From positions 1 to 23,324 of the IMG/VR virus record IMGVR_UViG_3300048916_000238: a stretch of DNA of 23,324 bases; one strand, given 5' to 3'. Numbering within the stretch: position 1 is the stretch's first letter; every line of letters starts with the position of its first letter. Origin of the DNA: a virus. The position numbers were made by a program, and so were the translations under genes. The notes beneath the pieces are model-generated. The model saw only the letters and a program-made list of their open reading frames with translations. It did not search any database and was not told the DNA's origin. This document shows, piece after piece, positions 3,425-21,059 of this stretch.

Positions 3425-3432
3425 CCGTTGGT

Positions 3433-3501: not shown

Positions 3502-3503
3502 GA

Positions 3504-3519: not shown

Positions 3520-3537
3520 CACTGAAGGGAGCACCAC

Positions 3538-3747: not shown

Positions 3748-3775
3748 CACCACCCGCCCCCACGGGGGCGGCCAA

Positions 3776-3847
3776 GGGCACGTAGCTCAAGGGCAGAGCA
3801 CCGGCACGACTTGCCGGTAGATGCAGGTTCGAGTCCTGCCGGTCCAC
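3776..3847 (+). ncRNA. tRNA-like element 4, cloverleaf-like but non-decoding
   Basis: Normal-looking TA at positions 8-9, D-arm GCTC-AAGGGCA-GAGC, and T-arm GCAGG-TTCGAGT-CCTGC (3823-3839). The acceptor is poor: GGGCACG against CGGTCCA gives about four pairs. The anticodon arm is an over-paired hairpin, ACCGGCA-CGACT-TGCCGGT (seven pairs, five-nt loop); forced into a 7-nt loop it would read ACGACTT, with C instead of U at position 33. A tRNA finder might call it Val(GAC) or a pseudo-tRNA. Either a decayed tRNA or a member of the non-decoding series in this island. Confidence 0.5.
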
Positions 3848-3850
3848 GAT

Positions 3851-3869
3851 CCCCGCTACCGGAGTGGGG
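3851..3869 (+). ncRNA. TACCGG-loop hairpin, copy 4
   Basis: CCCCGCT pairs with AGTGGGG (one G-U), leaving the loop ACCGG; the TACCGG string is kept at the apex. It ends 21 nt before the ATG at 3891, with GAAGGGAGC between. Confidence 0.55.
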
Positions 3870-3890
3870 TCACATGAAGGGAGCGCTCTG

Positions 3891-4409
3891 ATGAGCGACA
3901 AGTACCTCACCGGGCTGGTGCAGGACATCTTCACCCGCTACGGCGTCACCGAGGCCAGCATCGCCGCCCTGCCGACCATCGTGGCAGACCTCGCGTACCT
4001 GGTGGAGCGCGTCTCCACCGAGACCACCGAGATGGCGATTGCCAACCTCACCGACCCGGCCTGCCCGGCCTCGATCGTGAAGGACCGCACCTACAACCTC
4101 ATGATCGGGTTCACCGAGTCGGACCGCGCGAGCGGCTACGTCTCGTTCTGTGACGGCTACCGCGAGGGCGCCACGCAGCGCCTGGTCCTGCTCACCGTCC
4201 GGTCGGCCCGCACGTACGACGGTCCCGAGGTGGCCGAGGCGACCTTCGTCGCCACCAACCACCCCGAGCCGCACACCCTGGGCGGGCTGGCCGGCACCAT
4301 CGCCAAGGCGATGGACGGCAAGTGGGTGCGCTCGCTGTCGGTGGGCGACACGGTGGACGTCAACGGCACCAACTGGGCGTGCAGCCGCGCTGGCTGGGTC
4401 CAGGTCTAG
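3891..4409 (+). CDS. Hypothetical phage protein, 172 residues
   Basis: Unrecognised soluble protein with no membrane segment. The start at ATG 3891 is set by GGAG seven nucleotides upstream. The N-terminal third is helical (LTGLVQDIFTRYGV and following), the middle is mixed, and the C-terminus ends in a small beta-rich segment (RSLSVGDTVDVNG then NWACSRAGW) of a type common at the ends of small actinophage proteins. The stop is TAG, and the 39 codons after it contain no stop and lead in the same frame straight into the ATG of the gene at 4527. Confidence 0.85.
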   Translation: MSDKYLTGLVQDIFTRYGVTEASIAALPTIVADLAYLVERVSTETTEMAIANLTDPACPASIVKDRTYNLMIGFTESDRASGYVSFCDGYREGATQRLVLLTVRSARTYDGPEVAEATFVATNHPEPHTLGGLAGTIAKAMDGKWVRSLSVGDTVDVNGTNWACSRAGWVQV

Positions 4410-4415
4410 CAAGTC

Positions 4416-4485
4416 AGGCCAGTTGGAGACGGGTGTCTCCGCCCCCCGCGAGGGGGAGGGCCGGGTTCGAGTCCCGGCTGGCCAC
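4416..4485 (+). ncRNA. tRNA-like element 5 with tetraloop hairpins
   Basis: Acceptor AGGCCAG (4416-4422) with CTGGCCA (4478-4484) gives six of seven pairs. The T-arm CCGGG-TTCGAGT-CCCGG (4461-4477) is perfect. Between them are two clean hairpins: GGAGAC-GGGT-GTCTCC (4425-4440), where the D-arm belongs, and CCCCC-GCGA-GGGGG (4443-4456), a GNRA tetraloop where the anticodon arm belongs. A GNRA-capped stem cannot decode, so this is a tRNA mimic rather than a translating tRNA. Confidence 0.5.
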
Positions 4486-4487
4486 GA

Positions 4488-4507
4488 CCTCCGCTACCGG
4501 GCGGGGG
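4488..4507 (+). ncRNA. TACCGG-loop hairpin, copy 5
   Basis: Stem CCTCCGC/GCGGGGG (seven pairs, one G-U), loop TACCGG, ending 19 nt before the ATG at 4527, with GAAGGGAGC between. Same order of parts as at 3504 and 3851. Confidence 0.6.
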
Positions 4508-4526
4508 CACCGAAGGGAGCACAGCC

Positions 4527-4718
4527 ATGAAGATCACCGTCACCCTCGACGTGGACGTGAACGTGGACGACTGGCAGGCCGAGTACCACCTGAACAGTTC
4601 CATCGAGACGCTCCAGGACATCCTGCGCGACCTGCGCACGGCCGGCCACTACCTGACCTCGGAAAGGTACGCGGGCCTCGTCGAGGTCAAGCAAGCCCAG
4701 GCGACGATCATCCTGTGA
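4527..4718 (+). CDS. Small acidic protein, unknown function
   Basis: 63 residues: an N-terminal beta strand (KITVTLDVDVNVDDW) followed by helices. It starts at ATG after GAAGGGAGCACAGCC and ends in TGA two nucleotides before a strong terminator, so it closes the first plus-strand transcription unit. It is in the same frame as the gene upstream (3891-4409), separated only by a TAG and an open linker. No function is recognised. Confidence 0.75.
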   Translation: MKITVTLDVDVNVDDWQAEYHLNSSIETLQDILRDLRTAGHYLTSERYAGLVEVKQAQATIIL

Positions 4719-4721
4719 CGA

Positions 4722-4768
4722 GAAAGGCCCCGGCCACCGTGAGGTGGTGCGGGGCCTTTCTTATGCCC
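4722..4768 (+). terminator. Intrinsic terminator, probably bidirectional
   Basis: GAAAGGCCCC (4722-4731) pairs with GGGGCCTTTC (4751-4760), with an inner CCACC-GTGA-GGTGG arm, and TTATG follows. Transcription from the left stops after the gene at 4527; the same stem read on the other strand could end the minus-strand tRNA-Met transcript. Confidence 0.8.
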
Positions 4769-4781
4769 TCCGCAGGGCAAG

Positions 4782-4853
4782 TGGCGGATGCCGGAGCCGA
4801 ACCGGCGACCTCAGGGTTATGAGCCCCGCGCGCTACCACTGCGCCAATCCGCT
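4782..4853 (-). tRNA. tRNA-Met (CAU), initiator-like features
   Basis: Complete cloverleaf of 72 nt on the strand opposite to its neighbours. Acceptor AGCGGAT/ATCCGCC, D-arm GCGC-AGTGGTA-GCGC, anticodon arm CGGGG-CTCATAA-CCCTG, variable loop AGGTC, T-arm GCCGG-TTCGGCT-CCGGC, discriminator A, no encoded CCA. The anticodon is CAU. Position 1:72 is an A-C mismatch and three consecutive G-C pairs close the anticodon stem; both are hallmarks of initiator tRNA, though the D-arm looks more elongator-like. CAU could also belong to an isoleucine tRNA modified to lysidine. Confidence 0.9.
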
Positions 4854-4860
4854 GGCCCCC

Positions 4861-4894
4861 ACGATACGCCAGGGCTTGCCCGGTCGTGTATCGT
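4861..4894. promoter_or_regulatory. Inverted repeat ACGATAC...GTATCGT between tRNA-Met and next gene
   Basis: ACGATAC (4861-4867) and GTATCGT (4888-4894) are perfect inverted copies 20 nt apart, in the gap that must hold the promoters for the minus-strand tRNA-Met and for the plus-strand unit starting at 4935. TTGCCC (4876-4881) and CATACA (4900-4905), 18 nt apart, are a weak plus-strand promoter candidate. An operator role is inferred from position. Confidence 0.35.
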
Positions 4895-4934
4895 TACCCC
4901 ATACATCAGCCCTCCGCCAGACAGGAGCACCACC

Positions 4935-5384
4935 GTGATCACCGAGACACCCGCCGCCCAGGCCGTGGAGGAGGTGCTCGTCGAGCGCGTCGCACGCGGC
5001 CTCGGCTGGCTCCTCACCGAGGGCCACAAGCACGACCTGTCCATCGACCGCCTGTGCGACCGCCTCGGCTCGCTCAACATGGTGATGGCCGACACCTGCA
5101 TCCTCGGCCTCGCCTACACCGGCACGAACTCCGACGACCTGGCCGGGTTCTTCGCCACCCACAAGGCGGTCTGCACCGCACCCGCCACCGACGCGGACTG
5201 GCTCGGCCGGGGCTGGCTGCACAACGTGGACGAGGTGCCGGCGTGCTGGGCCATCCAGCACGGGTTCGACCTCGACGAGGCCACCGCCTCCACCCTCGGC
5301 CGCAACAAGACGTGGAACCTGCTGGAGACGCTGTGGACCCAGACCCTGGAGTCAACCTGTCGCGGGACGGAGGATCACCGGTGA
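4935..5384 (+). CDS. Hypothetical protein, distant tandem paralogue of the next gene
   Basis: 149 residues. GTG start with AGGAG seven nucleotides upstream (CAGGAGCACCACC). Mostly helical and acidic. The pattern RGLGWLLTEG (about 20-29), then a helix ending in a Cys-rich CILGLAYTG segment, then QHGFD near the C-terminal third, recurs in the next gene (RGLKWLREEG, WCVIALASG, RHGFE), so the two look like diverged duplicates. Function is not recognised. It ends in TGA overlapping the GTG of the following gene (GTGA), implying translational coupling. Confidence 0.85.
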   Translation: MITETPAAQAVEEVLVERVARGLGWLLTEGHKHDLSIDRLCDRLGSLNMVMADTCILGLAYTGTNSDDLAGFFATHKAVCTAPATDADWLGRGWLHNVDEVPACWAIQHGFDLDEATASTLGRNKTWNLLETLWTQTLESTCRGTEDHR

Positions 5385-5728
5385 ACATCCCGAAGCGGGT
5401 CCAGCGGGGCCTGAAGTGGCTGCGCGAGGAGGGCGGCGGCGAGGGGCTGCAACTCAGCAGCGCCGTTGCCGAGCGGGGCCGGCTGATGATGTCTAGCCCC
5501 TCCTGGTGCGTCATCGCCCTGGCTAGCGGCCACGAGAGCCCGTACGCGCGCTCCGACGCCTACTCGCGCGTGGCCGACAACCACGGCAAGGAGTGGCTGT
5601 GGCGGCACGGGTTCGAAGGCCGGGACGACGACCCGTACGGCGTCTACCACGCCCTTGACGGTGAGTGGCTCCGCGTGCTGGCGCTGGAGCAGGCGAAGCT
5701 CCCCGAGGTGCTGACCATCGGGGTCTAG
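5381..5728 (+). CDS. Hypothetical protein, paralogue of the preceding gene
   Basis: 115 residues. GTG start overlapping the upstream TGA by four bases, with GGAGG six nucleotides before it. Shares with its neighbour the RGLxWLxxEG opening, a buried-looking SWCVIALASGHESPYA segment and a WRHGFE motif. It probably adopts the same helical fold. Small actinophage proteins of this shape are usually annotated hypothetical; I can add no role. It ends in TAG, but a TGA follows one codon later, so read-through would change nothing. Confidence 0.85.
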   Translation: MNIPKRVQRGLKWLREEGGGEGLQLSSAVAERGRLMMSSPSWCVIALASGHESPYARSDAYSRVADNHGKEWLWRHGFEGRDDDPYGVYHALDGEWLRVLALEQAKLPEVLTIGV

Positions 5729-5934
5729 AAGTGAGCGGGCGCCCTGGCCGCGACTAAGACACAACGGCCCGGTTGCGACGCGCCACGGTCACACGGGGGC
5801 CGCCGGAGGAACGTCAAGACGCCGACCATCTGTCAGATGTCGCCAAGCCCCCGACCTGTGTTCACAGGGCCTGCGGACTGCAATGGGGATCACGGGCTCC
5901 CGGTCCGCAGGCTCCTCAGAAACGGAGAGTGATC
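5729..5934 (+). promoter_or_regulatory. Structured leader upstream of the gene at 5935
   Basis: 206 nt without a gene, unusually rich in hairpins: GGCCG/CGGCC around 14 nt (about 5746-5769), CATCTG-T-CAGATG (5827-5839), CCTGTG-TT-CACAGG (5855-5868), a 10-bp stem GCCTGCGGAC/GTCCGCAGGC (5869-5912), and CTCC-TCAGAAAC-GGAG (5912-5927), in which the GGAG is the ribosome binding site of the next gene. The last hairpin would hide the Shine-Dalgarno sequence unless opened. This looks like a translational control region, either a ligand- or protein-responsive leader or RNA processing signals. Confidence 0.5.
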
Positions 5935-6333
5935 ATGGCCCCACCGACCACCGCCACCCCCGACGAGACGTACGTGCGCTGGCCCCGGGCCGGCGGGTTC
6001 GTCCGGGAGATGCTCTACGACACGGTCGACGCGTACGTCGAGGCCGACCGTCACGCCCGCTGGTGGAACGTGCAGTGGGCGCGGGCGGCCCTCACCGAGG
6101 AATGGCGGGCCACCGAGGCCCGCCCGTTCGACGCCTCCATGTGGGCCGTCACGTACAAGCCGTTCGGCTACGTCGAGCGGTGGCGCTACCTCATCGAGGT
6201 CAACGCCTCCATCCAGGTCGGCGACCACGTCGTCGACATGAACTACGGCCTGTCGAGCGAGACGCGCTGGACCGCGATGCGCCTGTGGGGCGACCTGATC
6301 GGGGGGGCGACGGTCCGGCTGGTGGTGCACTGA
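5935..6333 (+). CDS. Hypothetical phage protein, 132 residues
   Basis: ATG start with GGAG seven nucleotides upstream; that GGAG can pair with an upstream CTCC. The protein is Trp- and Tyr-rich (YVRWPRAGG, RWWNVQWARAAL, YVERWRYLIEVN) and probably a compact alpha/beta fold. No catalytic or binding motif is recognised. Its TGA overlaps the next ATG (TGATG), so the two are translationally coupled. Confidence 0.8.
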   Translation: MAPPTTATPDETYVRWPRAGGFVREMLYDTVDAYVEADRHARWWNVQWARAALTEEWRATEARPFDASMWAVTYKPFGYVERWRYLIEVNASIQVGDHVVDMNYGLSSETRWTAMRLWGDLIGGATVRLVVH

Positions 6334-6590
6334 TGCCCCACGAGCCTACGGCGGCGTGCGAGCAGGACCACTGCGCCTGGCACAACGAGGACGAGCCGGC
6401 CACGGGCGTGGCCGATGGCGTGCTGTGCCACGAGTGCCTGCACTGGTACCCGACCGAGGCGGCCCTCATCGAGGCCCACGCCGACCGCCTGGCGGCCGAC
6501 GTGGTGCCCTCGGTGGACAGGGCGTTCCTCATCGCCAACACGCGGGTGGAGGACATCCACTCGTGCCCGCTCTGCTCACACGACTTCTAG
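6333..6590 (+). CDS. Small putative zinc-binding protein
   Basis: 85 residues, acidic. Two CxxC pairs, CHECLHW (about 31-37) and CPLC at the C-terminus, plus Cys/His near the start (CEQDHCAWH), resemble the ligand pairs of a treble-clef or zinc-ribbon fold. Coupled to the preceding gene by TGATG. It ends in TAG. Probably a nucleic-acid or protein adaptor; no closer assignment is possible from sequence. Confidence 0.75.
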   Translation: MPHEPTAACEQDHCAWHNEDEPATGVADGVLCHECLHWYPTEAALIEAHADRLAADVVPSVDRAFLIANTRVEDIHSCPLCSHDF

Positions 6591-6598
6591 GGGCGACC

Positions 6599-7021
6599 GT
6601 GATCCGCTACCGCTACAACCTCACCGTCGACTCCGAACCGGGGCCGCACGTGCGCCGGCTCCACACCTGGCACCCGGACTACCCGGGCGACCGCACCGTG
6701 TGGACTCGGCGGCCCTGCCGGGGCCGGGGCTACCGCATCGAGTGGCGGCGGATGAGCCGCACCGACCGGCGCTGGGCGCGGCGCAAGGGCGTGTTCTGGG
6801 TCAGCGCCGGAGGGCGGCGCCTGCATCACACGGGCTTCCGTCACCGGCGGGGCGCCTGGACCTGCGTACGGGCCACCGGCGGGTCGGGCCACTACCACTG
6901 GACCGACGGTGACAAGTCGCGCGCCTGGGGCCCCCTGCGGGGCGACGTGCTGGCCGCCGATGCGGACGCCTTCCGGCGTCTCCACTCGGCCAAGCCGCGC
7001 AAGTGGAGGCGGTGGCGGTGA
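6599..7021 (+). CDS. Very basic Arg-rich protein, unknown function
   Basis: 140 residues with many Arg, Trp, Tyr and His (RRPCRGRGYRIEWRRM, WARRKGVFWV, a KPRKWRRWR tail). GTG start about eight nucleotides after the TAG of the previous gene, with AGGGG upstream. The charge suggests nucleic-acid or nucleoprotein binding, but no known fold is visible. Its stop overlaps the GTG of the small membrane protein that follows. Confidence 0.75.
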   Translation: MIRYRYNLTVDSEPGPHVRRLHTWHPDYPGDRTVWTRRPCRGRGYRIEWRRMSRTDRRWARRKGVFWVSAGGRRLHHTGFRHRRGAWTCVRATGGSGHYHWTDGDKSRAWGPLRGDVLAADADAFRRLHSAKPRKWRRWR

Positions 7022-7131
7022 GCACCGACGCGGCCAGCGCGCTGCTCGGCCCGGGCCTGATCCTGTTCGGCCTGGCCGTGCTCGCGCTGCTGTGCGTGCT
7101 CGTCGCCCGAACGGTCAACGGCCGTGGGTAG
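7018..7131 (+). CDS. 37-residue single-pass membrane protein
   Basis: GTG start inside the end of the upstream gene, with GGAGG eight nucleotides before it. Residues about 9-31 are one uninterrupted hydrophobic helix (LLGPGLILFGLAVLALLCVL) followed by a basic tail, predicting a membrane segment with the tail inside. It ends in TAG, which lies within the first codons of the next gene. Short phage membrane proteins can be holin-like or exclusion factors; here only the topology can be stated. Confidence 0.6.
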   Translation: MSTDAASALLGPGLILFGLAVLALLCVLVARTVNGRG

Positions 7132-7342
7132 GACCGGCGCGGCGCCCTGGGCCCGGTTCGTGGACCGGCTCCACGACGAGCGGGTCAAGGCCGGGCTCAC
7201 CCAGGAGGACGTGGCCGATTGGATGGGCACCACCCAGAGCGCGGTCTCCGAGTGGGAGGCCGGCCGCACCCACCCCGGGGTTGGGTTCATCGACCGGTGG
7301 GCCAGCCTGTTCGGCCTGCACCTCGACTTCATGGAGGACTGA
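7124..7342 (+). CDS. XRE-family helix-turn-helix regulator
   Basis: 72 residues. A Cro/CI-type helix-turn-helix occupies residues about 12-65; the core GLTQEDVADWMGTTQSAVSE carries the usual TQEDVA and QSAVSEWE positions, followed by a short C-terminal helix. A small DNA-binding repressor or activator, probably acting as a dimer on island or phage promoters. The GTG start at 7124 overlaps the upstream stop, so expression would be coupled; there is no clear Shine-Dalgarno sequence. Followed 12 nt after its TGA by the suppressor-type tRNA. Confidence 0.85.
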   Translation: MGRTGAAPWARFVDRLHDERVKAGLTQEDVADWMGTTQSAVSEWEAGRTHPGVGFIDRWASLFGLHLDFMED

Positions 7343-7354
7343 GGAACCTCCCCC

Positions 7355-7426
7355 GGCCACGTAGCTCAACGGCAGAGCAGGCGCCTCTAAAGCGCACGGT
7401 TGCGGGTTCGAGTCCCGTCGTGGCCC
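7355..7426 (+). tRNA. tRNA with anticodon CUA (amber suppressor type)
   Basis: Fully canonical cloverleaf. Acceptor GGCCACG/CGTGGCC, TA at 8-9, D-arm GCTC-AACGGCA-GAGC, anticodon arm GGCGC-CTCTAAA-GCGCA (four pairs plus a G-A at the base), five-base variable loop, T-arm GCGGG-TTCGAGT-CCCGT, discriminator C, no encoded CCA. The loop has C32, U33 and A37, and bases 34-36 are CUA, which reads the stop codon UAG. The charged amino acid cannot be told by eye; discriminator C73 is unusual in bacteria outside tRNA-His. TAG stops are common in this island. Confidence 0.88.
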
Positions 7427-7604
7427 CTCGGAACGATGGCGTCAAGCGGCTGCCCGGGAAAGGGGACGATCCAGCCGTAAGGTCAGGCCGCATCGCCGAC
7501 TGGCTACGGCGGGTGCGGAAGGGTCTTTCACCCCGGGTTCCTTTCTGGCCCTGGAGCTTGGCCTGCGTCAGCGGGGGCCTCCCGTCCCGTGCGGCTCATA
7601 GGGA
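7427..7604 (+). other. Non-coding, hairpin-rich stretch after the suppressor tRNA
   Basis: No credible gene. Contains CGCCG/CGGCG (about 7493-7510), GGGTG/CACCC (about 7511-7533) and a long stem, GCGGGGGCCTCCC with GGGAGGCTCCCCGC (about 7571-7613), around a 17-nt loop. Together with the following tRNA-like pieces it makes about 500 nt of structured RNA up to the terminator. No known RNA family is recognised, and conserved group I intron core sequences were not found. Confidence 0.4.
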
Positions 7605-7766
7605 GGCTCCCCGCAACCCCTGTCGTGATACGGTAGACACGCGGTTGGCACGGAGAGGCTGCGCAGCGCTCCGGACTCTGGGCCAACCGCGTCACGGCCC
7701 TCAGGTGTAACCAGAGCACGCGCCCCTTCGGGGGGCGAAGGCGAGGTGCGATTCCTCGGGGGGCCC
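7605..7766 (+). ncRNA. Oversized tRNA-Leu-like element
   Basis: Pieces of a class II tRNA are present. The D-arm-like GTG-ATACGGTAGA-CAC (7625-7640) resembles tRNA-Leu, a UUCG-capped GCCCC/GGGGC arm (about 7721-7736) could be the long variable arm, and the T-arm-like CGAGG-TGCGATT-CCTCG (7742-7758) has G at loop position 55. Where the anticodon arm belongs there is a long stem, CGCGGTTGGC (7640-7649) with GCCAACCGCG (7682-7691), enclosing further pairing. A possible acceptor is GGCTCCC (7605-7611) with GGGGGCC (7759-7765). Total size of about 160 nt is twice a tRNA. Boundaries are uncertain. Confidence 0.35.
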
Positions 7767-7807
7767 CACAACTCCAGAGGTGCCCGGTGCGTAGGGCACG
7801 GTTACTT

Positions 7808-9153: not shown

Positions 9154-10047
9154 CTAGCTGTCCTCGGCCAACTCGGCGCCCTGCCGGGCCGCCTCCACCA
9201 GCGTCTCCATCGACGGGCCCGAACCGCCGCCGCCGGTGCCGGCCGGGATCGCGCCGATGACGGCCTGCACCGCCTGCGGAGAGGTGTCACCCCACGACAG
9301 GATCTCGGCACGCGGGTCGCCGTAGAACAGCTTGATCGCACCCAGCAGGTTCTTGGCGCTCGACTCGTCCGGGATCTCGCGGTGGTAGATGCCGTCACCG
9401 GCCCACCAGCGGCTGTGCTCGGTCGTCTCGCCGTTCGGGCCCGCACCCGACTTCGCCACCATCAGCATGTCGTCTCCCACCCTCCGTTGCGGCTCGCCCA
9501 CCACGAGCTTCATGAACACGTCCCACGGGAACTCGGGCCCCATGTCCGTATGGTTGCCGCCATCCTCCGGGAAGGCGTCCGTCACAGCCCAGTGGTCGCA
9601 GATGCCGCCCGGGCCGTCCTCGTAGTAGGCCGCCCTCACCTCGTCGACCGTCATCAGCCGCAAGGGAAGACGGATCGTGTCGCACACCCACCGGGCCGCC
9701 CCGGCGGCGTTGACCAGCGTCGGGTAGGACACCTCGTCGAGCCAGCCGGCGCGGCTCTGCACCGTGTCGCAGGTCTCGATGTGGACGCCGATCTCGTTGC
9801 CGTGGAAGTAGGCGCTGTGCGAGCGGTCGCCGAGCGGAACCTCCTGGAGCGGGGCGCCCAGGCTGTCGGCGAAGATGTGGCACGAGGTGCCGTCGGTGCG
9901 GCGCTTGTCGTAGGCGACGCCATCCTCGGCGGCCAGCGGGCCTGCGTAGCCGGCCGTGTAGTGGATGACGCACAGCTTGGGGGCTCGCGCGCGCCCGGGC
10001 GTGTACGACTTGGGGTAGCCGGCCCAGATGGGCGCTATACCAGCCAT
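9154..10047 (-). CDS. Endolysin: N-acetylmuramoyl-L-alanine amidase (Amidase_2)
   Basis: 297 residues. It cleaves the amide bond between N-acetylmuramic acid and L-Ala in peptidoglycan at lysis. The Amidase_2/PGRP-type domain spans about 20-180: LCVIHYTAG (metal ligand His29), an HIETCD strand, GICDHWAVTD (His152) and NHTDMGPEFPW (His166, with the usual H-x-D-x-GP-x-FPW pattern). After a linker, the C-terminal about 100 residues have no recognised wall-binding domain; the end is Gly/Ser-rich, then a helix. ATG start overlapping the previous gene. It ends in TAG; read-through would add about 16 mostly hydrophobic residues. No holin is certain nearby. Confidence 0.92.
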   Translation of the reverse strand: MAGIAPIWAGYPKSYTPGRARAPKLCVIHYTAGYAGPLAAEDGVAYDKRRTDGTSCHIFADSLGAPLQEVPLGDRSHSAYFHGNEIGVHIETCDTVQSRAGWLDEVSYPTLVNAAGAARWVCDTIRLPLRLMTVDEVRAAYYEDGPGGICDHWAVTDAFPEDGGNHTDMGPEFPWDVFMKLVVGEPQRRVGDDMLMVAKSGAGPNGETTEHSRWWAGDGIYHREIPDESSAKNLLGAIKLFYGDPRAEILSWGDTSPQAVQAVIGAIPAGTGGGGSGPSMETLVEAARQGAELAEDS

Positions 10048-15106: not shown

Positions 15107-15204
15107 CAGCGCAGCACTCCCGTCAGGCAGGCGGCGGCCAGCAGGTAGAGCAGCACGGCCATGACCCACAGCGCGCGCCCCAGGTCCCGTCCCAGGTTGC
15201 CCAT
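15106..15204 (-). CDS. 32-residue single-pass membrane protein
   Basis: ATG and stop both overlap neighbours by TGATG, which supports reality despite the length. GRALWVMAVLLYLLAAACL is one transmembrane helix with a basic N-terminal flank. Directly follows the TET/JBP-like gene. Function unknown. Confidence 0.6.
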   Translation of the reverse strand: MGNLGRDLGRALWVMAVLLYLLAAACLTGVLR

Positions 15205-16085
15205 CAGCGCTTCGCCCACCACTCGGCGGCGCGGCGAGCCTCGGTGTCGGCGTCGGCGCAGCCCACCATCGCCGTACGGAAGTACGACACGACCGAGATG
15301 CGCTCCGCCCCGCACGTCTCGCACAGCCCGAACAGGGTGTTTCCGCAGCCACAGACGATGTCGGTGTTGGCGTGCCACTCATGGGCGTCCATGAGCAGCA
15401 GGTCGCCGTTGCCCATCGAGACGGCCACCCGGTACTCGGGGAACAGCAGGTTCCCGCCCGTGAACGAGCCGCCCCGGCGGAGCACGGCCAGGGTGGAGAA
15501 GCCCGCATCCAGGTCGCCCTTGTCCGTGTGCATCCCGGTTGGGTAGGTGTTGTTGACGGTGACGGTGGTGAACGGGGTGCCGGGCACGACCCATTCGGGG
15601 CGGGTGGCGATGACCTCGCGCATCTGTGCGCGGTGGCGTTCGGGTACGTGGGCGGCCATCTGGTCGGCGATGGCGGCGAGGAACGGCTGGAGGGTCTCCC
15701 ACCTGGGGAGGTTGCGGCCGGTCCAGGCGGTGAGGCGGCAGTAGCGGCGGTAGCTGTTCGGGTCGAACGCTCCGATGATGGTGCTGCTGGTGGTGGGTGC
15801 GTAGCGCTTGCCGGAGGGGGATTTGGCGATGCCGCCGCCGCTGGACATGCCCCGGTTGTTGGTGGTGTGAGTCCGCAATTCGTGCAGGATGCCGTAGATG
15901 GTGTCGTTGTTGGCCCATTCGTCCAGTACGTGGGGAAGGTAGACGCAGAGGGGTTTGCCGTCGGGCTTGAGGACCTTGGCGGGGCCGGTGAGGAGCACGT
16001 CGTAGTCGGCTGGGCCGAGCACCTTGCCTTGCTTGGGTTCCAGGTGTTCGGCGGCGAGGCGGGTGCGTAGCCGTAGCTCGATCAT
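15204..16085 (-). CDS. TET/JBP-family 2-oxoglutarate/Fe(II) DNA base dioxygenase
   Basis: 293 residues. The family oxidises the methyl group of thymine or 5-methylcytosine in DNA to hydroxymethyl (or further), using Fe(II), O2 and 2-oxoglutarate. TVTVNNTYPTGMHTDKGD supplies the HxD pair (His186, Asp188); GNLLFPEYRVAV, then GDLLLMDAHEWHANTD, supplies the distal His (235 or 238); ERISVVSYFR the Arg that holds 2-oxoglutarate. The HTDKGD and MDxHEWHxN strings are strikingly JBP-like, favouring thymine, though phage members acting on 5-methylcytosine are known. Between the distal His and the Arg is an insertion with four cysteines (VCGCGN, GLCETCGA). ATG overlaps the previous stop. It lies in one operon with a P-loop kinase, an FAD enzyme and a pyrophosphorylase-like protein. 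Confidence 0.88.
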   Translation of the reverse strand: MIELRLRTRLAAEHLEPKQGKVLGPADYDVLLTGPAKVLKPDGKPLCVYLPHVLDEWANNDTIYGILHELRTHTTNNRGMSSGGGIAKSPSGKRYAPTTSSTIIGAFDPNSYRRYCRLTAWTGRNLPRWETLQPFLAAIADQMAAHVPERHRAQMREVIATRPEWVVPGTPFTTVTVNNTYPTGMHTDKGDLDAGFSTLAVLRRGGSFTGGNLLFPEYRVAVSMGNGDLLLMDAHEWHANTDIVCGCGNTLFGLCETCGAERISVVSYFRTAMVGCADADTEARRAAEWWAKR

Positions 16086-16375
16086 GTCTGCGAGTCTCCC
16101 ACCGGCGGGCGGCCCCAACGGTGCAGCAGATGCTCGGCGGTGCCGGCCATGGCCCGGGTGATGTCGCTGTTGTCGGTCTCCATGAGGTTGAGGATGGCGC
16201 CGGTGGCGTCCAGCAGGGCGTAGTCCCGGTCGGGTTCGGGTGTCTCGGCGACCTGGCGGATCACCTTGGCGATCAGGGACGCCACCGGGTCGAGCATGAT
16301 GCGCCGGGCGATGGCCGGCCGGGCGGCCTTGATGGCCCGCTGGACGCGGTGGACGATCTCGAACTCGTCGGGCAT
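16082..16375 (-). CDS. Hypothetical helical protein, 97 residues
   Basis: ATG overlapping the upstream TGA (TGATG) and ATGA overlap with the dioxygenase downstream, so it is tightly coupled. Helical throughout (EFEIVHRVQRAIKAARPAIA, PVASLIAKVIRQVAE, ALLDATGAILNLMETD). No motif. Its neighbour upstream is similar in size and style; no role in modification can be claimed beyond position. Confidence 0.8.
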   Translation of the reverse strand: MPDEFEIVHRVQRAIKAARPAIARRIMLDPVASLIAKVIRQVAETPEPDRDYALLDATGAILNLMETDNSDITRAMAGTAEHLLHRWGRPPVGDSQT

Positions 16376-16662
16376 CACTGCCGTGCCGCCTTGATGAAGA
16401 CGTTGGTGAGCGCGGCCTGGAGGTTGCAGCCGGTCTCGTGGCACGCCAGGTCGTGGATGGTCTCGGCCATGCCCACGTATGAGCCGGACAAGGTGGCGAA
16501 GATCGCCTGGCCGCCGCTGCCCTTCGGGTATCCGGCGGCCTGGTCCATGGCGTGGTCGGCGAACTCCAGGAACGTGGCGGCGGTGATCAGGGCGGCCGTC
16601 GCGGCCGTCTCGGGCCCGAGGGCGTCGGTCAGGTTCTTCATCAGGGTCTCAGCGGGGCTCAC
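16375..16662 (-). CDS. Hypothetical helical protein, 95 residues
   Basis: GTG start with AAGG six nucleotides upstream, overlapping the upstream stop. Ala-rich helices (GPETAATAALITAATFLEFA, DHAMDQAAGYPKGSG) and two Cys near the C-terminus (ACHETGC). No recognised domain. Confidence 0.78.
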   Translation of the reverse strand: MSPAETLMKNLTDALGPETAATAALITAATFLEFADHAMDQAAGYPKGSGGQAIFATLSGSYVGMAETIHDLACHETGCNLQAALTNVFIKAARQ

Positions 16663-16895
16663 GGCTTGCCTTTCTTCTGGACGACGGAGTCGAGTGCCTC
16701 CTGGAGGGCGGTCTGGCGGGCGGCGTCGATCTGGCCGCGCAGGGAGCACGGCCACTCCTCACCGTCCTGTTCGCACACGACCTGGCAGGTGGCGATGCCG
16801 TAGCTGTTGCGGATCGTGACCTCGCTGGGTTGGTGGTTGCGGTCGGCCATCTCCCGCACGCGCGGGTCGTGGAGCAGTTGGATGGTGTGGTTCAC
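16659..16895 (-). CDS. Hypothetical protein, 78 residues
   Basis: GTG start overlapping the upstream stop, GGAG nine nucleotides before. NHTIQLLHDPRVREMADR, then a strand segment VTIRNSYGIATCQVVCEQDG with three Cys in total, then a helix QIDAARQTALQEALDSVV and a basic tail. Possibly metal- or nucleic-acid-binding. Not recognised. Confidence 0.77.
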   Translation of the reverse strand: MNHTIQLLHDPRVREMADRNHQPSEVTIRNSYGIATCQVVCEQDGEEWPCSLRGQIDAARQTALQEALDSVVQKKGKP

Positions 16896-17074
16896 GGCAG
16901 GCAACTCCATCCGTCTCCGTGCTGGGCTTCGACGACGTGGCGGCCGGACAGTTCGCATCGGGCCTGGGCGTGCTTTTCGCGCTGGTCGAGGACCACGGCG
17001 ACGGTGATCAGGGCGGCCCACAGGATGGCTATGGCGACCAGGAGCGGCGGCGGCGGGCCGTTTCGGGTCACCAT
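16892..17074 (-). CDS. Small single-pass membrane protein, 60 residues
   Basis: ATG overlaps the upstream gene. After VTRNGPPPP comes a transmembrane helix (LLVAIAILWAALITVAVVLD) and then a charged, Cys/His-containing tail (ARCELSGRHVVEAQHGDG), predicted cytoplasmic or periplasmic depending on orientation. One of four short membrane proteins in this block. Function unknown. Confidence 0.7.
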   Translation of the reverse strand: MVTRNGPPPPLLVAIAILWAALITVAVVLDQREKHAQARCELSGRHVVEAQHGDGWSCLP

Positions 17075-17211
17075 GCCGGGTACCGGCCCCAGATGGTGCT
17101 GACGGTCTCGGCGCAGATCAGCACCGTGAGCACCAGCGCACCGGCGAGCACGGCGACCACCATCAGGCAGCCGTGGGGCAACTCGGGCCGGGTCTTCGGC
17201 TCGTCACCCAT
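17068..17211 (-). CDS. 47-residue single-pass membrane protein
   Basis: ATG start eight nucleotides inside the upstream gene, ending in a TGA that overlaps the next ATG. A polar N-terminus (GDEPKTRPELPHG), one hydrophobic helix (MVVAVLAGALVLTVLICAE) and a short tail. Pairs with the adjacent 60-residue membrane protein. Confidence 0.62.
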   Translation of the reverse strand: MGDEPKTRPELPHGCLMVVAVLAGALVLTVLICAETVSTIWGRYPAW

Positions 17212-17452
17212 GGGTGGCCTCCTGGATCTCGTTGGGCTTGCGCTCGTTGTCGAGGTAGACGATTCGGGTAGCGCCCCCGTGGCCGTGGATGATCGCCACG
17301 TCGGCCATGGAGGCGTACACGGCGGTCGAGGCGGTGGCGGTCAGCCAGCGCAGGGCGACGGTGCCGTCGGTGAAGGCGACGCCCTCGGCGACGGTGCCGA
17401 CGCCGGAGACGCCCGACTCGTCGCGGATACGGTGCAGGCGGAAGCGGCGCAT
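17204..17452 (-). CDS. Hypothetical beta-rich protein, 82 residues
   Basis: ATG overlapping the kinase stop (TGATG) with GAGGAG five nucleotides upstream. A strand-rich sequence, SGVGTVAEGVAFTDGTVALR, then VYASMADVAIIHGHGGATRI and IVYLDNERKPNEIQ. Several actinobacterial phage proteins of this style are annotated only as hypothetical. Its place directly after the kinase makes a link to base modification possible but unproven. Confidence 0.78.
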   Translation of the reverse strand: MRRFRLHRIRDESGVSGVGTVAEGVAFTDGTVALRWLTATASTAVYASMADVAIIHGHGGATRIVYLDNERKPNEIQEATHG

Positions 17453-18060
17453 CAGAACTCCTCGGGGAGGGGCAGCAGGGGCGGGTCGTTGTGGACGTCG
17501 AGGCGGAGCAGGGGTGGCCACTTGCGGGCGACGCGCTGGGCGTTGACCCACACCGGGGCGGCGGCGTCGAGCGGCAGGTAGCTGTGGGCGTTGGTGGCGG
17601 CCCACTCGCCGACGCGGCGCACCTTGGTGGCCCGCCCCGACCGCCAGGTTGCCGACTGGTTGGAGCCCCGCTCGGCGCACCGGATGTCGAGCAGGTCGGG
17701 TGAGGCGATGAGGTGGGCAACGTTGACCCGCCAGTTGAGGTTGAGCATCGCCGACAGGAACTTGACGTTGCCGAGCCGGTCGCCCTCGCCGAGGACCAGT
17801 TCGTAGGGTGCGGTGCGCATCCAGTCCTCCACCTTCGGCTGCACCGACATGGAGAGGGCGTCGGTGCCGCTGAACCCGCCCTCGCGGGTGATGCCAAGCA
17901 TGGCGGCCTCAGACTTGTCGGGGCAGGCGAGCACGGTGAACCCGAACGGGCGCAGCGCCCGGTACGGCTGGCACTTGGCGACGAGGGCCTGCATGAGGGT
18001 CGTCTTGCCGGCCCCCGGGGCGCCGATCAGGTAGACAAGAGTGTGCGCATGCGGGCCCAC
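17452..18060 (-). CDS. P-loop kinase, candidate 5-hydroxymethyl-pyrimidine DNA kinase
   Basis: 202 residues. GTG start after GGAGGAGG with seven nucleotides between, inside the end of the FAD-enzyme gene. The start of the protein is VYLIGAPGAGKTTLMQAL, a textbook Walker A (residues 13-21); LVLGEGDRLG (88-97) is a Walker B-like element, and RCAERGSNQS to RATKVRRV is an Arg-rich lid. Phage kinases of this type phosphorylate 5-hydroxymethyluracil in DNA as the activating step of thymine hypermodification. The P-loop is certain; the substrate is inferred from the adjacent pyrophosphorylase-like, FAD and TET/JBP genes. Alternatives are a deoxynucleotide kinase or another small P-loop NTPase. Confidence 0.82.
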   Translation of the reverse strand: MGPHAHTLVYLIGAPGAGKTTLMQALVAKCQPYRALRPFGFTVLACPDKSEAAMLGITREGGFSGTDALSMSVQPKVEDWMRTAPYELVLGEGDRLGNVKFLSAMLNLNWRVNVAHLIASPDLLDIRCAERGSNQSATWRSGRATKVRRVGEWAATNAHSYLPLDAAAPVWVNAQRVARKWPPLLRLDVHNDPPLLPLPEEF

Positions 18061-18953
18061 TGGGCCACCTCCTCCACGAGACTGGGCGCCCAGCGGACGC
18101 CGGAATGCCACAGGGCCGGGTAGATGATCTGGTTTTCGGTGCGGATGATGCGTCCCTCCGAGCCGGTGTGGGGTTTGGGGCGCCATCCCTGGAGGATCTC
18201 CGGGTCCGTCCCAACGATCTTGACGCCCGGGAACAGGGTGGCGAAGTCTGTGCGCCAGCGCAGGTAGGCGTCCTGCAACTGAAGCTCGCTCCGGGTGTAC
18301 GGGTAACGCTCGTTGACCAGCGACGAGCCGGCCCACCAGAGGCCAGGCTCGGCGGCCACCGGGTAGGCGTAGGTGAGGGCGAACCGGTGGACCTTCCCGT
18401 AGAGGGCGATCCGCTTGCTGTCGTACGGGTCGGTCACGCCGAGGGGGAAGCGGAGGAAGACGCGCCGGCTCCAGCCCCACACGGTGCCGTTGGTGGTGAG
18501 CGCGTTGGGCCGGGCCACCACCACGGGCACGTCCTGCGGGACGTGCCCGATGCGGTAGGGCTCGAAGATGCGGCGGGCGACCTCGACCACGCGCTGGACG
18601 TTGACGGCCACGCCCATGGCGGCCGACACCTTGAGGCCAGGTACGCCCGGGGCGGCGGTGAACGGATGCTTGCCGTCGTGGGGTGGGCGCTTGTGGGTCC
18701 AGGCCCACTGGGCCAGGCAGGCGTAGTCGGTGACCTCAGGCCCCAAGGGGCCGTCGCCGTTGAGCACCCAGCGAATCCAGGAGGCCCGCTCCTGCTCGCT
18801 GCGCACATCGCCGGACGGGTAGACGAACCCGGTCGACGCCCGCCACGCCTGGTACGCCGACTCGGTGTCATCCCAGGTGAACTCGATGCCCTCACGGGCC
18901 AGGGCAAAGGCGGTCATCGCCCCAAACCAGCCCATACCGTTAACGTGGATCAA
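18027..18953 (-). CDS. FAD-dependent oxidoreductase (DAO-like), probable base-tailoring enzyme
   Basis: 308 residues. TTG start with GGAG six nucleotides upstream. The N-terminus is a dinucleotide-binding fold: IHVNGMGWFGAMTAFALA (Gly6, Gly8, Gly11) and an acidic strand end (FTWDDTE). GLWWAGSSL (204-212) and IIYPALWHSGVRWAP (276-290) recall the substrate and FAD-tail regions of D-amino-acid-oxidase-like enzymes. In phages such enzymes occur in thymine hypermodification loci, where they are thought to oxidise or cleave the amine attached to the base. Overlaps the kinase by 34 nt and the pyrophosphorylase-like gene by 14, implying coordinated synthesis. The FAD fold is fairly sure; the substrate is inference. 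Confidence 0.75.
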   Translation of the reverse strand: MIHVNGMGWFGAMTAFALAREGIEFTWDDTESAYQAWRASTGFVYPSGDVRSEQERASWIRWVLNGDGPLGPEVTDYACLAQWAWTHKRPPHDGKHPFTAAPGVPGLKVSAAMGVAVNVQRVVEVARRIFEPYRIGHVPQDVPVVVARPNALTTNGTVWGWSRRVFLRFPLGVTDPYDSKRIALYGKVHRFALTYAYPVAAEPGLWWAGSSLVNERYPYTRSELQLQDAYLRWRTDFATLFPGVKIVGTDPEILQGWRPKPHTGSEGRIIRTENQIIYPALWHSGVRWAPSLVEEVAQWARMRTLLST

Positions 18954-19872
18954 TGATCTCTCCGGTCTCGCGGTAGACGCGGCGGCGGGCCTTGTCCACG
19001 TCGTAGGGCCAGCGGAACGGGAACAGCACGGCCCCGGCGGCGCTGGCCCGCAGGAGCAGCACGCCCTCCTCGGTCCGGTCGGCCCCGTCCACTGAGTCGA
19101 TGCCGATGGCCTTCATGGCGCGGCGCAACTGGCCGCCCATCTGGTCGATGTCGTGGCCCACGTAGTAGCGGCCGGCGGCCAGCGAGTGGAAGTCACACAG
19201 GGTGGTCTCGGTGGTGGGTTGGGTAGCGAGCAGGTCACGGCGCCACAACTCGTCCACGAGCAGCCCCGACACGGCGTTGAGCCGGCGCACGGCGGCGGCG
19301 CTGTGGCCGTAGGGCAGCGGCCCCCGGAACAGCAGGGCCAGGCCGGCACGCGGGCCGGAGGAGTGGGCGTGGCCCATGTCGGTCGGGGCAAGCTCGGGCC
19401 GGCCGAAGACGGACGCGAGAAGCTCGCACGTCTTGTAGGCGGCCCAGCGGCCGTTGCCCCAGATGGACAGGGCCTTGCCGAACAGGTCACCGTAGCCAGA
19501 TGCGCTTGTCACAAATCGGTCTAGGCCCTCATGGTGGGTGTCCAGCGCCACCAGGGCCTCAAGGTGGCGCTTGAGCACGCGCGGGTCACGGTGGCCCCGG
19601 CGCTCGGTGCCGCACGGCAGGGTCAGCAACTCGGGCACCCACTGGCCGGCCAGCATCAGCGACGCGGCCCGCAGGGCCGAGCCGAGGTCGTAGTAGGCGA
19701 CGTGCAGGAAGCACATCCACGCCAGGCTGTGCGGAGGGTAGTTGCGGCCGAGGCGGCGCAGCACCGGGTAAACCGGGTCCACGTCGCCGGTGGCGGTGGC
19801 AAGGTCGTGGAACCGGGCGTAGTCGTCGATCAGCCCCGGCTGCCAGACGGTCTGGCCGTGGGTGAGCCTCAC
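18940..19872 (-). CDS. Alpha-glutamyl/putrescinyl-thymine pyrophosphorylase-like (amino acid:DNA transferase)
   Basis: 310 residues. GTG start overlapping the upstream stop; TAA stop. All-helical, with AWMCFLHVAYYDLGSALRAA, a possible HhH-like GKALSIWGNGRWAAYKTCEL (132-151), a His/Gly-rich TDMGHAHSSGPRAG (164-177) and TTLCDFHSLAAGRYYVGHDI (223-242). These features, and above all the neighbours, suggest the DNA-glycosylase-fold group that replaces the pyrophosphate on activated 5-hydroxymethyluracil with an amine such as putrescine or an amino acid. The sequence is divergent, so a profile search is needed before the family is accepted; otherwise it is a conserved unknown of the modification operon. 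Confidence 0.6.
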   Translation of the reverse strand: MRLTHGQTVWQPGLIDDYARFHDLATATGDVDPVYPVLRRLGRNYPPHSLAWMCFLHVAYYDLGSALRAASLMLAGQWVPELLTLPCGTERRGHRDPRVLKRHLEALVALDTHHEGLDRFVTSASGYGDLFGKALSIWGNGRWAAYKTCELLASVFGRPELAPTDMGHAHSSGPRAGLALLFRGPLPYGHSAAAVRRLNAVSGLLVDELWRRDLLATQPTTETTLCDFHSLAAGRYYVGHDIDQMGGQLRRAMKAIGIDSVDGADRTEEGVLLLRASAAGAVLFPFRWPYDVDKARRRVYRETGEIIDPR

Positions 19873-20054
19873 TTGCCCCCCTGCCCCGGCCGGTCGAACC
19901 GGCCATACCAGTGGGCCCGCTCGTTGACGGCCTCGTCGAAGGCGGCCAGGCAGGCGAGCAGGAACCGGGCCAGCAGGAAATCGGGCGTGTTCGACTCGTT
20001 CTCGGCGCTGTGCCGATTGAGGGTCTCGGTGAGGTCGCGCCGCAGGTCACTCAT
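19869..20054 (-). CDS. Hypothetical protein, 61 residues
   Basis: ATG start with GGAGG six nucleotides upstream, overlapping the previous gene. SDLRRDLTETLNRHSAEN, then a helix FLLARFLLACLAAFDEAVNE, and a Gly/Arg-rich end. A small helical partner of the gene it overlaps downstream is possible. Not recognised. Confidence 0.78.
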   Translation of the reverse strand: MSDLRRDLTETLNRHSAENESNTPDFLLARFLLACLAAFDEAVNERAHWYGRFDRPGQGGK

Positions 20055-20346
20055 CTCCGGCCTCCAGGATCTCGCAGGCGGCCTCGAACCCGTTGAGGTG
20101 CTCCTGGGTGATCATCGAACCGGGCCGGCCGTACTGGGCCTTGAGCCGCTCGAACTCGCCGCGCAGGACGGTGATGGCGGGGCGGGCGGCCTCGCGTCCC
20201 CACAGCGGAACGCACTCCCAGTGCAGGTGGTGAACGCCACTCAAGGCCCTACCGATGTCGGGCGCCTCGGCCGGGGCAGCCGCGAGCAGGTAGGCCACCT
20301 CGTCGATGCGCTTCTTGCAGCGGTCGCAGGAGGTCTGGACGCTCAC
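20047..20346 (-). CDS. Hypothetical protein with CxxC motif, 99 residues
   Basis: GTG start overlapping the ParB-like stop (GTGA). SCDRCKKRIDEVAYLLAA begins with a CxxC knuckle; WECVPLWGREAA supplies a third Cys. The C-terminal half is helical (LRGEFERLKAQYGRPG, FEAACEILEAGDE). Possibly a small zinc-binding adaptor. Unknown function. Confidence 0.78.
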   Translation of the reverse strand: MSVQTSCDRCKKRIDEVAYLLAAAPAEAPDIGRALSGVHHLHWECVPLWGREAARPAITVLRGEFERLKAQYGRPGSMITQEHLNGFEAACEILEAGDE

Positions 20347-21059
20347 GCCGCGCCATCCACAGCCCGGGCAACGGCGGCGTAGACCAGTTCGCCGTTGGTC
20401 AACTGGTCGCCCCACTTGACCCGCAGCACCTGCAGCCAGTTGACCAACTGCTCCTTCTTGTCGGTGGTCAGGACGAGGATGACTTCTTCCAGCCCCTGCG
20501 CCTTCATCGGCTGGTAGTTGGCGACGTTGTCGGCGTGCTGGGCCCGCTCCTCGTCGCTGCCCGAGTAGTGGGCGTCGGTGGCCGCGTTGTAGACCAGCGC
20601 CTCCTGCCCGGCCAGGGCCTGCAACGTCTCCAGGTCGTCGATGGTGTAGCCGGTGCCGCCCAGGTCGTCCAGCGACTCCAGCAGCGCGATCAGCGCGGCG
20701 TCGTCGTAGGTGCCGAGGTCGGCGGTGCGGTTGTCGACGGCCAGGATGCGGCGCTCCGCCTCGGGGGTGAGGCCGTGAAGGAACACGACCTGGATCTGGC
20801 CCCAGCCGAGGTAGCGGGCAGCCATGAGGGTGTGGTTGCCGGCCAGGACGTAGTTGGTCTCGCCCGAGACGATGAGCGGCCGGTACTGGCCGGTGGTCTC
20901 CAGCGACTCGGCGATGGCGGCCATGTTGCCCCGGCGCGGGTTGTCCGGATGGACCTCGATCACGTCGATTGCAACGGTCTCGACCTTCAGGTCGTGGCCC
21001 ACCTTGCCGGTCTGGATGTCCTTGCCCACGCTGTCCTCCACCTCATAGAAGTCGGTCAT
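20343..21059 (-). CDS. ParB-like nuclease/partition-domain protein
   Basis: 238 residues. ATG overlapping the upstream TGA (ATGA). The N-terminal ParB fold shows VHPDNPRRGNMAAIAESLET (36-55), GQYRPLIVSGETNYVLAGNH (57-76) and TLMAARYLGW. The C-terminal part (AERRILAVDNRTADLGTYDD) matches phage ParB-like proteins that accompany DNA-modifying enzymes. ParB folds bind CTP or DNA or act as nucleases; no chromosome-partition partner (ParA) is seen, so a role in DNA modification, packaging or host DNA processing is more likely. Confidence 0.85.
   Translation of the reverse strand: MTDFYEVEDSVGKDIQTGKVGHDLKVETVAIDVIEVHPDNPRRGNMAAIAESLETTGQYRPLIVSGETNYVLAGNHTLMAARYLGWGQIQVVFLHGLTPEAERRILAVDNRTADLGTYDDAALIALLESLDDLGGTGYTIDDLETLQALAGQEALVYNAATDAHYSGSDEERAQHADNVANYQPMKAQGLEEVILVLTTDKKEQLVNWLQVLRVKWGDQLTNGELVYAAVARAVDGAA

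What the first reader, a model, noticed from the sequence alone, without database searches (positions are those of the whole stretch)
15204..19872. Candidate DNA thymine (or 5mC) hypermodification pathway: TET/JBP dioxygenase, P-loop kinase, FAD enzyme, pyrophosphorylase-like protein
Seen: a JBP-like HTDKGD...MDAHEWHAN...ERISVV dioxygenase, a GAPGAGKTT kinase, a GxGxxG FAD-type enzyme and a GP-rich helical protein, all in one overlapping minus-strand operon with two ParB-like genes upstream. Known: phages hypermodify thymine by making 5-hydroxymethyluracil, phosphorylating it in DNA, displacing the (pyro)phosphate with an amine or amino acid, then tailoring with FAD and other enzymes. TET/JBP genes have been noted computationally beside such enzymes. 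Inferred: here the oxidase acts on methylated bases already in DNA, so no nucleotide hydroxymethylase is needed. The order oxidise, phosphorylate, substitute, tailor would be a complete post-replicative pathway. The final base is unknown.
Basis: partly seen in the sequence, partly recalled or inferred. Interest (0 to 1): 0.88.

Follow-up and report, generated by a model that had tools for sequence, protein, structure and literature searches.

The report
Phage cassette for hypermodified DNA thymine
This phage fragment carries a four-enzyme cassette that probably rewrites thymines already built into its DNA (oxidise, phosphorylate, attach an amino acid, trim it to an amine) to hide the DNA from bacterial defences; the general idea was predicted before, but this route has not been shown in the laboratory in any source I could read.

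Summary
The minus strand of this 23.3-kb IMG/VR contig encodes a Tet_JBP dioxygenase (PF12851, E 2e-16), a P-loop kinase (PF18751, E 1e-24), an amino acid:DNA transferase (PF18724 ADDT, E 3e-11) and a flavoenzyme. The flavoenzyme has no Pfam hit, but its model has the glycine/D-amino-acid-oxidase fold and matches the solved phage PaMx11 N-alpha-glycinylthymidine FAD lyase (TM 0.6).

Context supports one pathway. Of 42 non-redundant ADDT loci in IMG/VR, 37 have a TET, 40 the kinase and 29 a flavoenzyme nearby; none has the TET-associated glycosyltransferase, which has a TET beside it in 25 of 27 clusters and never the kinase or ADDT. Thymidylate-synthase-fold enzymes (nucleotide route, as in phage M6) occur in 1 of 61 record searches, C5-cytosine methyltransferases in 5. 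Thymine in DNA is the likeliest substrate, 5-aminomethyl-deoxyuridine the likeliest product.

Caveats: the kinase is not of the proven HMUDK family and in some mycobacteriophages sits beside TerL without TET or ADDT; only one 'ParB' has profile support; no chemistry was tested. TET-fed hypermodification was predicted before, and phage Tonitrus was annotated in 2025 with the same set. New member of a known, largely untested kind.

The parts
15204..16085 (-). TET/JBP 2-oxoglutarate/Fe(II) dioxygenase, 293 aa, ATG start; clade with a CxC...CxxC (probably zinc-binding) insert before the 2OG-binding arginine
   Evidence: PF12851 E 2.2e-16; invariant HxD...H...R; clade 100/99 with L010-L022, Cr30, HTVC112P, P12024L
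17452..18060 (-). P-loop kinase, Ploopntkinase3 family; proposed 5-hydroxymethyluracil-DNA kinase
   Evidence: PF18751 E 1.4e-24; GxPGxGK[ST], R, GTD, EGxRL motifs invariant in 12 relatives; near ADDT in 40 of 42 non-redundant loci
18027..18953 (-). FAD-dependent enzyme of the D-amino-acid/glycine-oxidase fold; proposed N-alpha-glycinylthymidine lyase-like tailoring enzyme; TTG start
   Evidence: AlphaFold2 model pTM 0.78, mean pLDDT 72.6; Foldseek hits to glycine oxidase, DAAO, iminodiacetate oxidase and phage PaMx11 gp47 lyase 8z79/8z2o; G6/G8/G11 invariant
18940..19872 (-). Amino acid:DNA transferase (ADDT, formerly aGPT-PPlase2), 310 aa, GTG start
   Evidence: PF18724 E 3.2e-11; family profile matches solved glycinyltransferase 8z2m E 4e-11 and ADDT 25qc E 2e-15 over nearly the full length; matches M6 gp051 at 97% probability
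20343..21059 (-). ParB-like protein that heads the cassette; conserved but of unknown role (targeting or regulation)
   Evidence: PHROG ParB families E 4e-38; near ADDT in 35 of 42 clusters
19869..20054 (-). 61-aa ORF whose stop overlaps the ADDT start by 4 nt; translational coupling likely
16113..17446 (-). Run of small ORFs (16113-16375, 16375-16662, 16659-16892, 16892-17074, 17204-17446) between kinase and TET; no family assigned; two are conserved in L010/L011
22268..23323 (-). Second upstream gene with a ParB-like DGQHRLAA motif; runs to the contig end
   Evidence: PHROG phrog_5931 (unknown function) E 5e-37; no Pfam match; relatives upstream in L014, L023, L025

Best explanation
A post-replicative thymine hypermodification cassette of a tailed phage, probably of an actinobacterial host. 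(1) The TET/JBP enzyme hydroxylates the methyl group of selected thymines in finished DNA to 5-hydroxymethyluracil. (2) The P-loop kinase phosphorylates that hydroxymethyl group. (3) ADDT displaces the phosphate with an amino acid, most likely glycine, through its amine. (4) The flavoenzyme oxidises or cleaves the glycine C-N bond, as the PaMx11 N-alpha-GlyT lyase does, leaving 5-aminomethyl-deoxyuridine. The positively charged base would shield phage DNA from restriction enzymes. Shown here: the four families or folds, their genomic coupling, and the absence of the nucleotide-level hydroxymethylase and of a C5-methyltransferase in nearly all relatives. Inferred: every chemical step, the choice of glycine and the final base. 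Sub-claims: TET- and ADDT-based DNA hypermodification 0.88; thymine as substrate 0.8; kinase acts on 5hmU in DNA 0.75; 5-aminomethyl-dU as product about 0.45. The confidence given is for steps 1-3 on thymine with amine tailoring in step 4, not for the exact final base.
For: Families: Tet_JBP, Ploopntkinase3 and ADDT, all over Pfam cut-offs. ADDT aligns along nearly its whole length with solved glycinyltransferase 8z2m and ADDT 25qc and with M6 gp051. The flavoenzyme model matches glycine oxidase, DAAO and the PaMx11 N-alpha-GlyT lyase. Coupling: 42 ADDT clusters, TET in 37, kinase in 40, flavoenzyme in 29, TAGT in 0; 27 TAGT clusters, TET in 25, kinase and ADDT in 0; from the kinase side, 27 of 33 clusters have TET and 25 ADDT. 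No PF00303 in 17 of 18 and 43 of 43 records, whereas the proven hypermodifier M6 has PF00303 and no TET. C5-methyltransferase in 0 of 18 and 5 of 43 records. Complete isolated phages carry TET, ADDT and kinase together: Tonitrus, MakoManhole, Phelemich, LilMcDreamy, Kozie.
Against: Kimbrough, Zenteno07 and Saguaro keep the kinase beside TerL with no TET or ADDT in the whole genome, so the kinase family is not dedicated to this pathway. Terij and three contigs have TET plus kinase but no ADDT. The kinase is not of the HMUDK family. The flavoenzyme's own subfamily profile finds no PDB relative by sequence; its assignment rests on a model of moderate confidence, and generic amine oxidases score as well as the lyase. 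C5-methyltransferases are about equally rare in records with TAGT cassettes (4 of 43), so their absence argues only weakly for thymine. The contig is a fragment. No chemistry is available.
Confidence: 0.7

Rival explanations
1. Cytosine version: a host or phage methyltransferase makes 5mC, the TET oxidises it to 5hmC, and kinase, ADDT and flavoenzyme build an aminated cytosine.
For: Characterised phage TETs act on 5mC with C5-methyltransferases and glycosyltransferases (Burke 2021, as summarised in PMC12730594). Tet_JBP profiles do not separate the two substrates. 5 of 43 ADDT records carry a C5-methyltransferase match.
Against: No C5-methyltransferase in the window, in 9 complete phage records with a TET or in 38 of 43 further records; by contig coordinates most of the hits lie far from the cassette. 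The experimentally known ADDT partners work on thymine-derived 5hmU in M6 and PaMx11 (names of PDB entries 8z2m and 8z79; PMC6449724).
Confidence: 0.12
2. The P-loop protein is a packaging or other phage function that merely sits next to the cassette; the phosphorylation step is done by another enzyme or not needed.
For: The nearest PHROG is named terminase small subunit. In Kimbrough, Zenteno07 and Saguaro it sits directly upstream of TerL, with no TET or ADDT, in Saguaro with a 7-deazaguanine cassette. TerL lies near it in 13 of 33 kinase clusters.
Against: In the window TerL is at 3-1685, about 16 kb away, and in L010-L021 and L028 the kinase is in the cassette without an adjacent TerL match. 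It goes with ADDT in 40 of 42 clusters and with TAGT in 0 of 27. M6's 5-hmdU DNA kinase family protein is likewise annotated terminase small subunit.
Confidence: 0.15
3. Steps 1-3 run as proposed, but the flavoenzyme does something else (for example dehydrogenates the attached amino acid), so the end product is not 5-aminomethyl-dU.
For: Fold matches spread over many amine oxidases with similar scores. Its subfamily is far from the PaMx11 lyase in sequence. Other cassettes replace it by PLP or Asp/Asn-hydroxylase-like enzymes, so the tailoring slot is variable.
Against: The best structural neighbours are enzymes that break the C-N bond of glycine-like substrates, and the lyase from a solved ADDT pathway is among them.
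Confidence: 0.35

Closest known systems
Rhodococcus phage Tonitrus five-gene thymidine hypermodification set (PMC11955845; PP978825)
   Same: ParB-like, TET-like, ADDT (aGPT-Pplase2), PF18751 kinase and a homologue of the window flavoenzyme (42% and 34% identity for ADDT and flavoenzyme)
   Different: Its TET belongs to the other deep clade (100/99), gene order differs, and the flavoenzyme was left as hypothetical protein
Pseudomonas phage M6 pathway (5-aminoethyl-dU)
   Same: Homologous ADDT (PF18724); phosphorylated 5hmU-DNA as proposed intermediate
   Different: M6 makes 5hmU at nucleotide level (PF00303), uses kinase families HMUDK_HMUD1/HMUDK_hel, has PLP and radical-SAM enzymes for tailoring, and has no TET
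Pseudomonas phage PaMx11 N-alpha-GlyT/5-NmdU pathway (PDB 8z2m, 8z2o, 8z79)
   Same: Glycinyltransferase (ADDT) plus FAD lyase of the same fold
   Different: Window flavoenzyme is remote in sequence (14% in the structural alignment). How PaMx11 makes 5hmU was not examined here; a thymidylate-synthase-type enzyme is expected from memory
TET + TET-associated glycosyltransferase (TAGT, PF20691) cassettes; base J in kinetoplastids
   Same: TET-made hydroxymethyl-pyrimidine as the starting point; L014 has a close relative of the window TET next to a TAGT
   Different: The hydroxymethyl group is presumably glycosylated instead; no kinase or ADDT in any of 27 clusters

Membership tests
TET/JBP dioxygenases (PF12851) | Profile match above cut-off with HxD...H iron ligands and 2OG-binding R | tested here: met
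   E 2.2e-16, 59.9 vs 34.9 bits; residues invariant
TET/JBP dioxygenases (PF12851) | Oxidation of T or 5mC in DNA | not testable with these tools
   needs an enzyme assay
Amino acid:DNA transferase, ADDT (PF18724) | Profile match and near full-length alignment with solved glycinyltransferase, ERR and ExxLC motifs | tested here: met
   invariant E90 R91 R92, E222, C226
5-hmdU DNA kinase HMUDK (PF18748 + PF18723) | Belongs to the HMUDK_HMUD1 kinase family with HMUDK_hel partner | tested here: not met
   Kinase is PF18751, no PF18748 among the families shown; only P-loop-level similarity to M6 gp054, 54% probability; PF18723 not found in the window
Ploopntkinase3 (PF18751) | Profile match above cut-off | tested here: met
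   87.1 vs 27 bits
N-alpha-GlyT FAD-dependent lyase (PaMx11 gp47/NGTO) | DAO-type FAD fold | tested here: met
   TM 0.58/0.61 to 8z79, E 9e-9
N-alpha-GlyT FAD-dependent lyase (PaMx11 gp47/NGTO) | Specific sequence kinship with the lyase over other amine oxidases | tested here: inconclusive
   Subfamily profile A5 finds no PDB relative; the wider profile A1 finds lyase and glycine oxidase alike
M6-type thymidine hypermodification | Thymidylate-synthase-fold deoxyuridylate hydroxymethylase | tested here: not met
   absent from the window, 17 of 18 and 43 of 43 records
5mC-based TET hypermodification | C5-cytosine methyltransferase in the same genome, beside the TET | tested here: not met
   absent from the window (a fragment) and its relatives; matches in 5 of 43 wider records

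The most novel reading that the evidence does not exclude
A widespread, purely post-replicative route to aminated thymine, in which a TET/JBP enzyme acts on thymine in phage DNA and a non-HMUDK kinase, ADDT and a flavin lyase complete 5-aminomethyl-deoxyuridine, with TET output used interchangeably by this branch and by a glycosylation branch.
Probability: 0.45. Interest if true: 0.7.

Novelty: new member of a known kind. Interest (0 to 1): 0.52.

Why it matters
If true, phages have a second, independent way to feed the amino-acid hypermodification pathway: from thymine in DNA rather than from the nucleotide pool. I know of no demonstration of a thymine-acting TET/JBP in a prokaryotic system; that rests on memory and a partial library. 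Complete, isolated phages with the same cassette (MakoManhole, Phelemich, Tonitrus) exist, so the prediction can be tested directly by nucleoside mass spectrometry. The enzymes would be candidates for placing amines on thymine in DNA. The work also shows that names in public records hide the pathway ('terminase small subunit', 'adenylate kinase', 'queuine tRNA-ribosyltransferase').

Tried and rejected
Looking for relatives of the FAD gene from the single sequence gave none in IMG/VR; an alignment query worked.

Nucleotide-level hydroxymethylase and C5-methyltransferases were sought in relatives: absent or sporadic. The C5-methyltransferase contrast with TAGT records was not informative (4 of 43), so it is not used as strong evidence.

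The kinase was taken as strictly coupled to ADDT after the first census; that was rejected when mycobacteriophages turned up with kinase and TerL only.

The flavoenzyme as an NAD-Rossmann enzyme (weak ApbA and UDPG hits of its relatives) was rejected by fold.

The L014 neighbour of a close TET relative was unknown to Pfam on its own; 13 of 15 family members match TAGT and the model is GT-A-like.

Key papers (Iyer 2013, Lee 2018 and 2022, Burke 2021, Wen 2024) are not in the library or were seen only as citations, so their content is cited from memory or second-hand.
Full report
What was checked. The window is the whole of a 23,324-base IMG/VR virus record. It is about 70% GC, with a terminase large subunit at the left edge (3-1685 minus), an amidase (9154-10047) and several tRNA genes. 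Pfam gives Tet_JBP for 15204-16085 (E 2.2e-16), Ploopntkinase3 for 17452-18060 (E 1.4e-24) and ADDT, 'amino acid:DNA transferase', for 18940-19872 (E 3.2e-11), each above the curated cut-off. The fourth, 18027-18953, has no Pfam match. ADDT, the fourth gene and the kinase overlap by 14 and 34 bases. The TET lies 1.4 kb downstream behind small ORFs. Of the two 'ParB' genes, 20343-21059 is supported by PHROG profiles (E 4e-38) and the other only by an uncharacterised family.

The enzymes. The dioxygenase keeps HxD, the distal H and the 2OG arginine across 15 phage relatives. Window-type TETs carry a CxC...CxxC insert. The ADDT family profile matches the solved 'Glycinyltransferase' 8z2m (E 4e-11) and ADDT 25qc (E 2e-15) over most of the chain and M6 gp051 (97% probability). 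The flavoenzyme's AlphaFold2 model (pTM 0.78, mean pLDDT 72.6) matches iminodiacetate oxidase, D-amino-acid oxidase, glycine oxidase and the PaMx11 N-alpha-glycinylthymidine FAD lyase 8z79 (TM 0.58/0.61). A homologue in L028 matches the C-terminal part of Pfam DAO weakly (E 1e-4, below cut-off). By sequence alone the window subfamily reaches no PDB entry. Calling it a lyase for glycinyl-thymine is therefore an inference from fold plus context.

Relatives. Isolated actinophages carry TET, ADDT and kinase together: Tonitrus, MakoManhole, Phelemich, LilMcDreamy, Kozie. [quoted passage not shown] IMG/VR contigs with 53-82% identical TETs show variants of the middle slot: L010/L011 with the window flavoenzyme, L012/L013 with a DAO, L016-L022 mostly with a PLP enzyme, and L014/L015 with a glycosyltransferase and neither kinase nor ADDT. 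L028 adds a GNAT acetyltransferase.

Census. Starting from ADDT, 57 loci collapse to 42 clusters at 90% identity: TET within 6 kb on the same strand in 37, kinase in 40, flavoenzyme in 29, ParB in 35, TAGT in 0. Starting from the L014-type glycosyltransferase, recognised as TAGT (PF20691; GT-A-like fold), 27 clusters: TET in 25, kinase 0, ADDT 0. Starting from the kinase, 33 clusters: TET in 27, ADDT in 25. These are loci found by conserved peptide patterns, not a random sample; some are truncated at contig ends, and clusters are not phylogenetically independent. TET products thus seem to feed either glycosylation or phosphorylation plus amino-acid transfer, never both in this sample.

Thymine or cytosine. 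The TS-fold hydroxymethylase (PF00303) is absent from 17 of 18 records in one search (only Cr30 has it) and from 43 of 43 in another. C5-methyltransferases are absent from 18 of 18 and from 38 of 43. M6, a proven thymidine hypermodifier (PMC6449724), shows the mirror image: PF00303, HMUDK kinase, ADDT, PLP and radical-SAM enzymes, no TET. So the window replaces both the source of 5hmU and the kinase by other enzyme families while keeping a homologous transferase. The cytosine route cannot be excluded: many records are fragments, and the methyltransferase is also rare in TAGT records (4 of 43).

The kinase. This is the weakest link. It is not of the HMUDK family. In Kimbrough, Zenteno07 and Saguaro the same family sits next to TerL without TET or ADDT in the whole genome; in Saguaro a 7-deazaguanine cassette occupies the slot. 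The kinase search hit 388 phage records, 362 of them mycobacteriophages, while ADDT hit only 17, so the TerL context may be common among isolates; only three of those genomes were examined. In the window TerL is about 16 kb away, and many cassettes carry the kinase without TerL, so a role in the pathway remains the better reading here.

Evolution. The TET tree splits into two deep clades (100/99): the window, L010-L022, Cr30, HTVC112P and P12024L in one; Tonitrus, Gordonia, Mycobacterium, Microbacterium and L028 in the other. The ADDT tree instead separates L018/L022 from all others including the window (100/100). The partners have therefore probably been reshuffled, and two distant TET lineages serve the same downstream enzymes, which suggests they make the same product. 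Long branches limit finer claims.

Verdict. The most likely product is 5-aminomethyl-deoxyuridine, at moderate confidence. The kind of system is known from prediction (Iyer 2013, content from memory; cited in PMC6449724) and from a genome announcement; this is a further member, with a firmer assignment of the fourth enzyme and clear tests.

Noticed in passing
window 7355-7427 (+): tRNA with anticodon CTA (amber suppressor type; ARAGORN labels it Pyl; Rfam tRNA 62.6 bits), in a phage where 5 of 26 counted genes end in TAG. Role unknown.
   Followed up: partly
L137, L138, L139 (Kimbrough, Zenteno07, Saguaro): PF18751 kinase directly upstream of TerL with no TET or ADDT in the genome; Saguaro has a 7-deazaguanine cassette in the same slot.
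   Followed up: partly
L006 (Terij), L153, L156, L157: TET and kinase next to TerL, mostly headed by ParB, without ADDT in the whole record; the end product could be a phosphorylated 5hmU or need an unknown transferase.
   Followed up: partly
L028 5729-9239: Compact TET-GNAT acetyltransferase-ADDT-flavoenzyme-kinase cassette; might make an N-acetylated aminomethyl base.
   Followed up: partly
L003 and L005 gene 2; L135 gp054: Likely misannotations: 'queuine tRNA-ribosyltransferase' in Phelemich and LilMcDreamy matches Tet_JBP (below cut-off, catalytic residues kept); M6 'terminase small subunit' gp054 is in the 5-hmdU DNA kinase family.
   Followed up: yes
L008 (Caulobacter phage Cr30): TET, a gene annotated cysteine dioxygenase and ADDT close together, plus a thymidylate-synthase-fold gene elsewhere in the genome; no PF18751 kinase.
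   Followed up: partly
window 20343-21059 and relatives: A ParB-like protein heads most cassettes (35 of 42 ADDT clusters, 7 of 27 TAGT clusters); its role in modification is unexplained.
   Followed up: no
window 2695-7767: Further tRNA or tRNA-like genes on both strands (2695-2766, 3776-3846, 4417-4485, 4781-4853 minus, 7696-7767); 3776-3846 was found by Rfam only.
   Followed up: no
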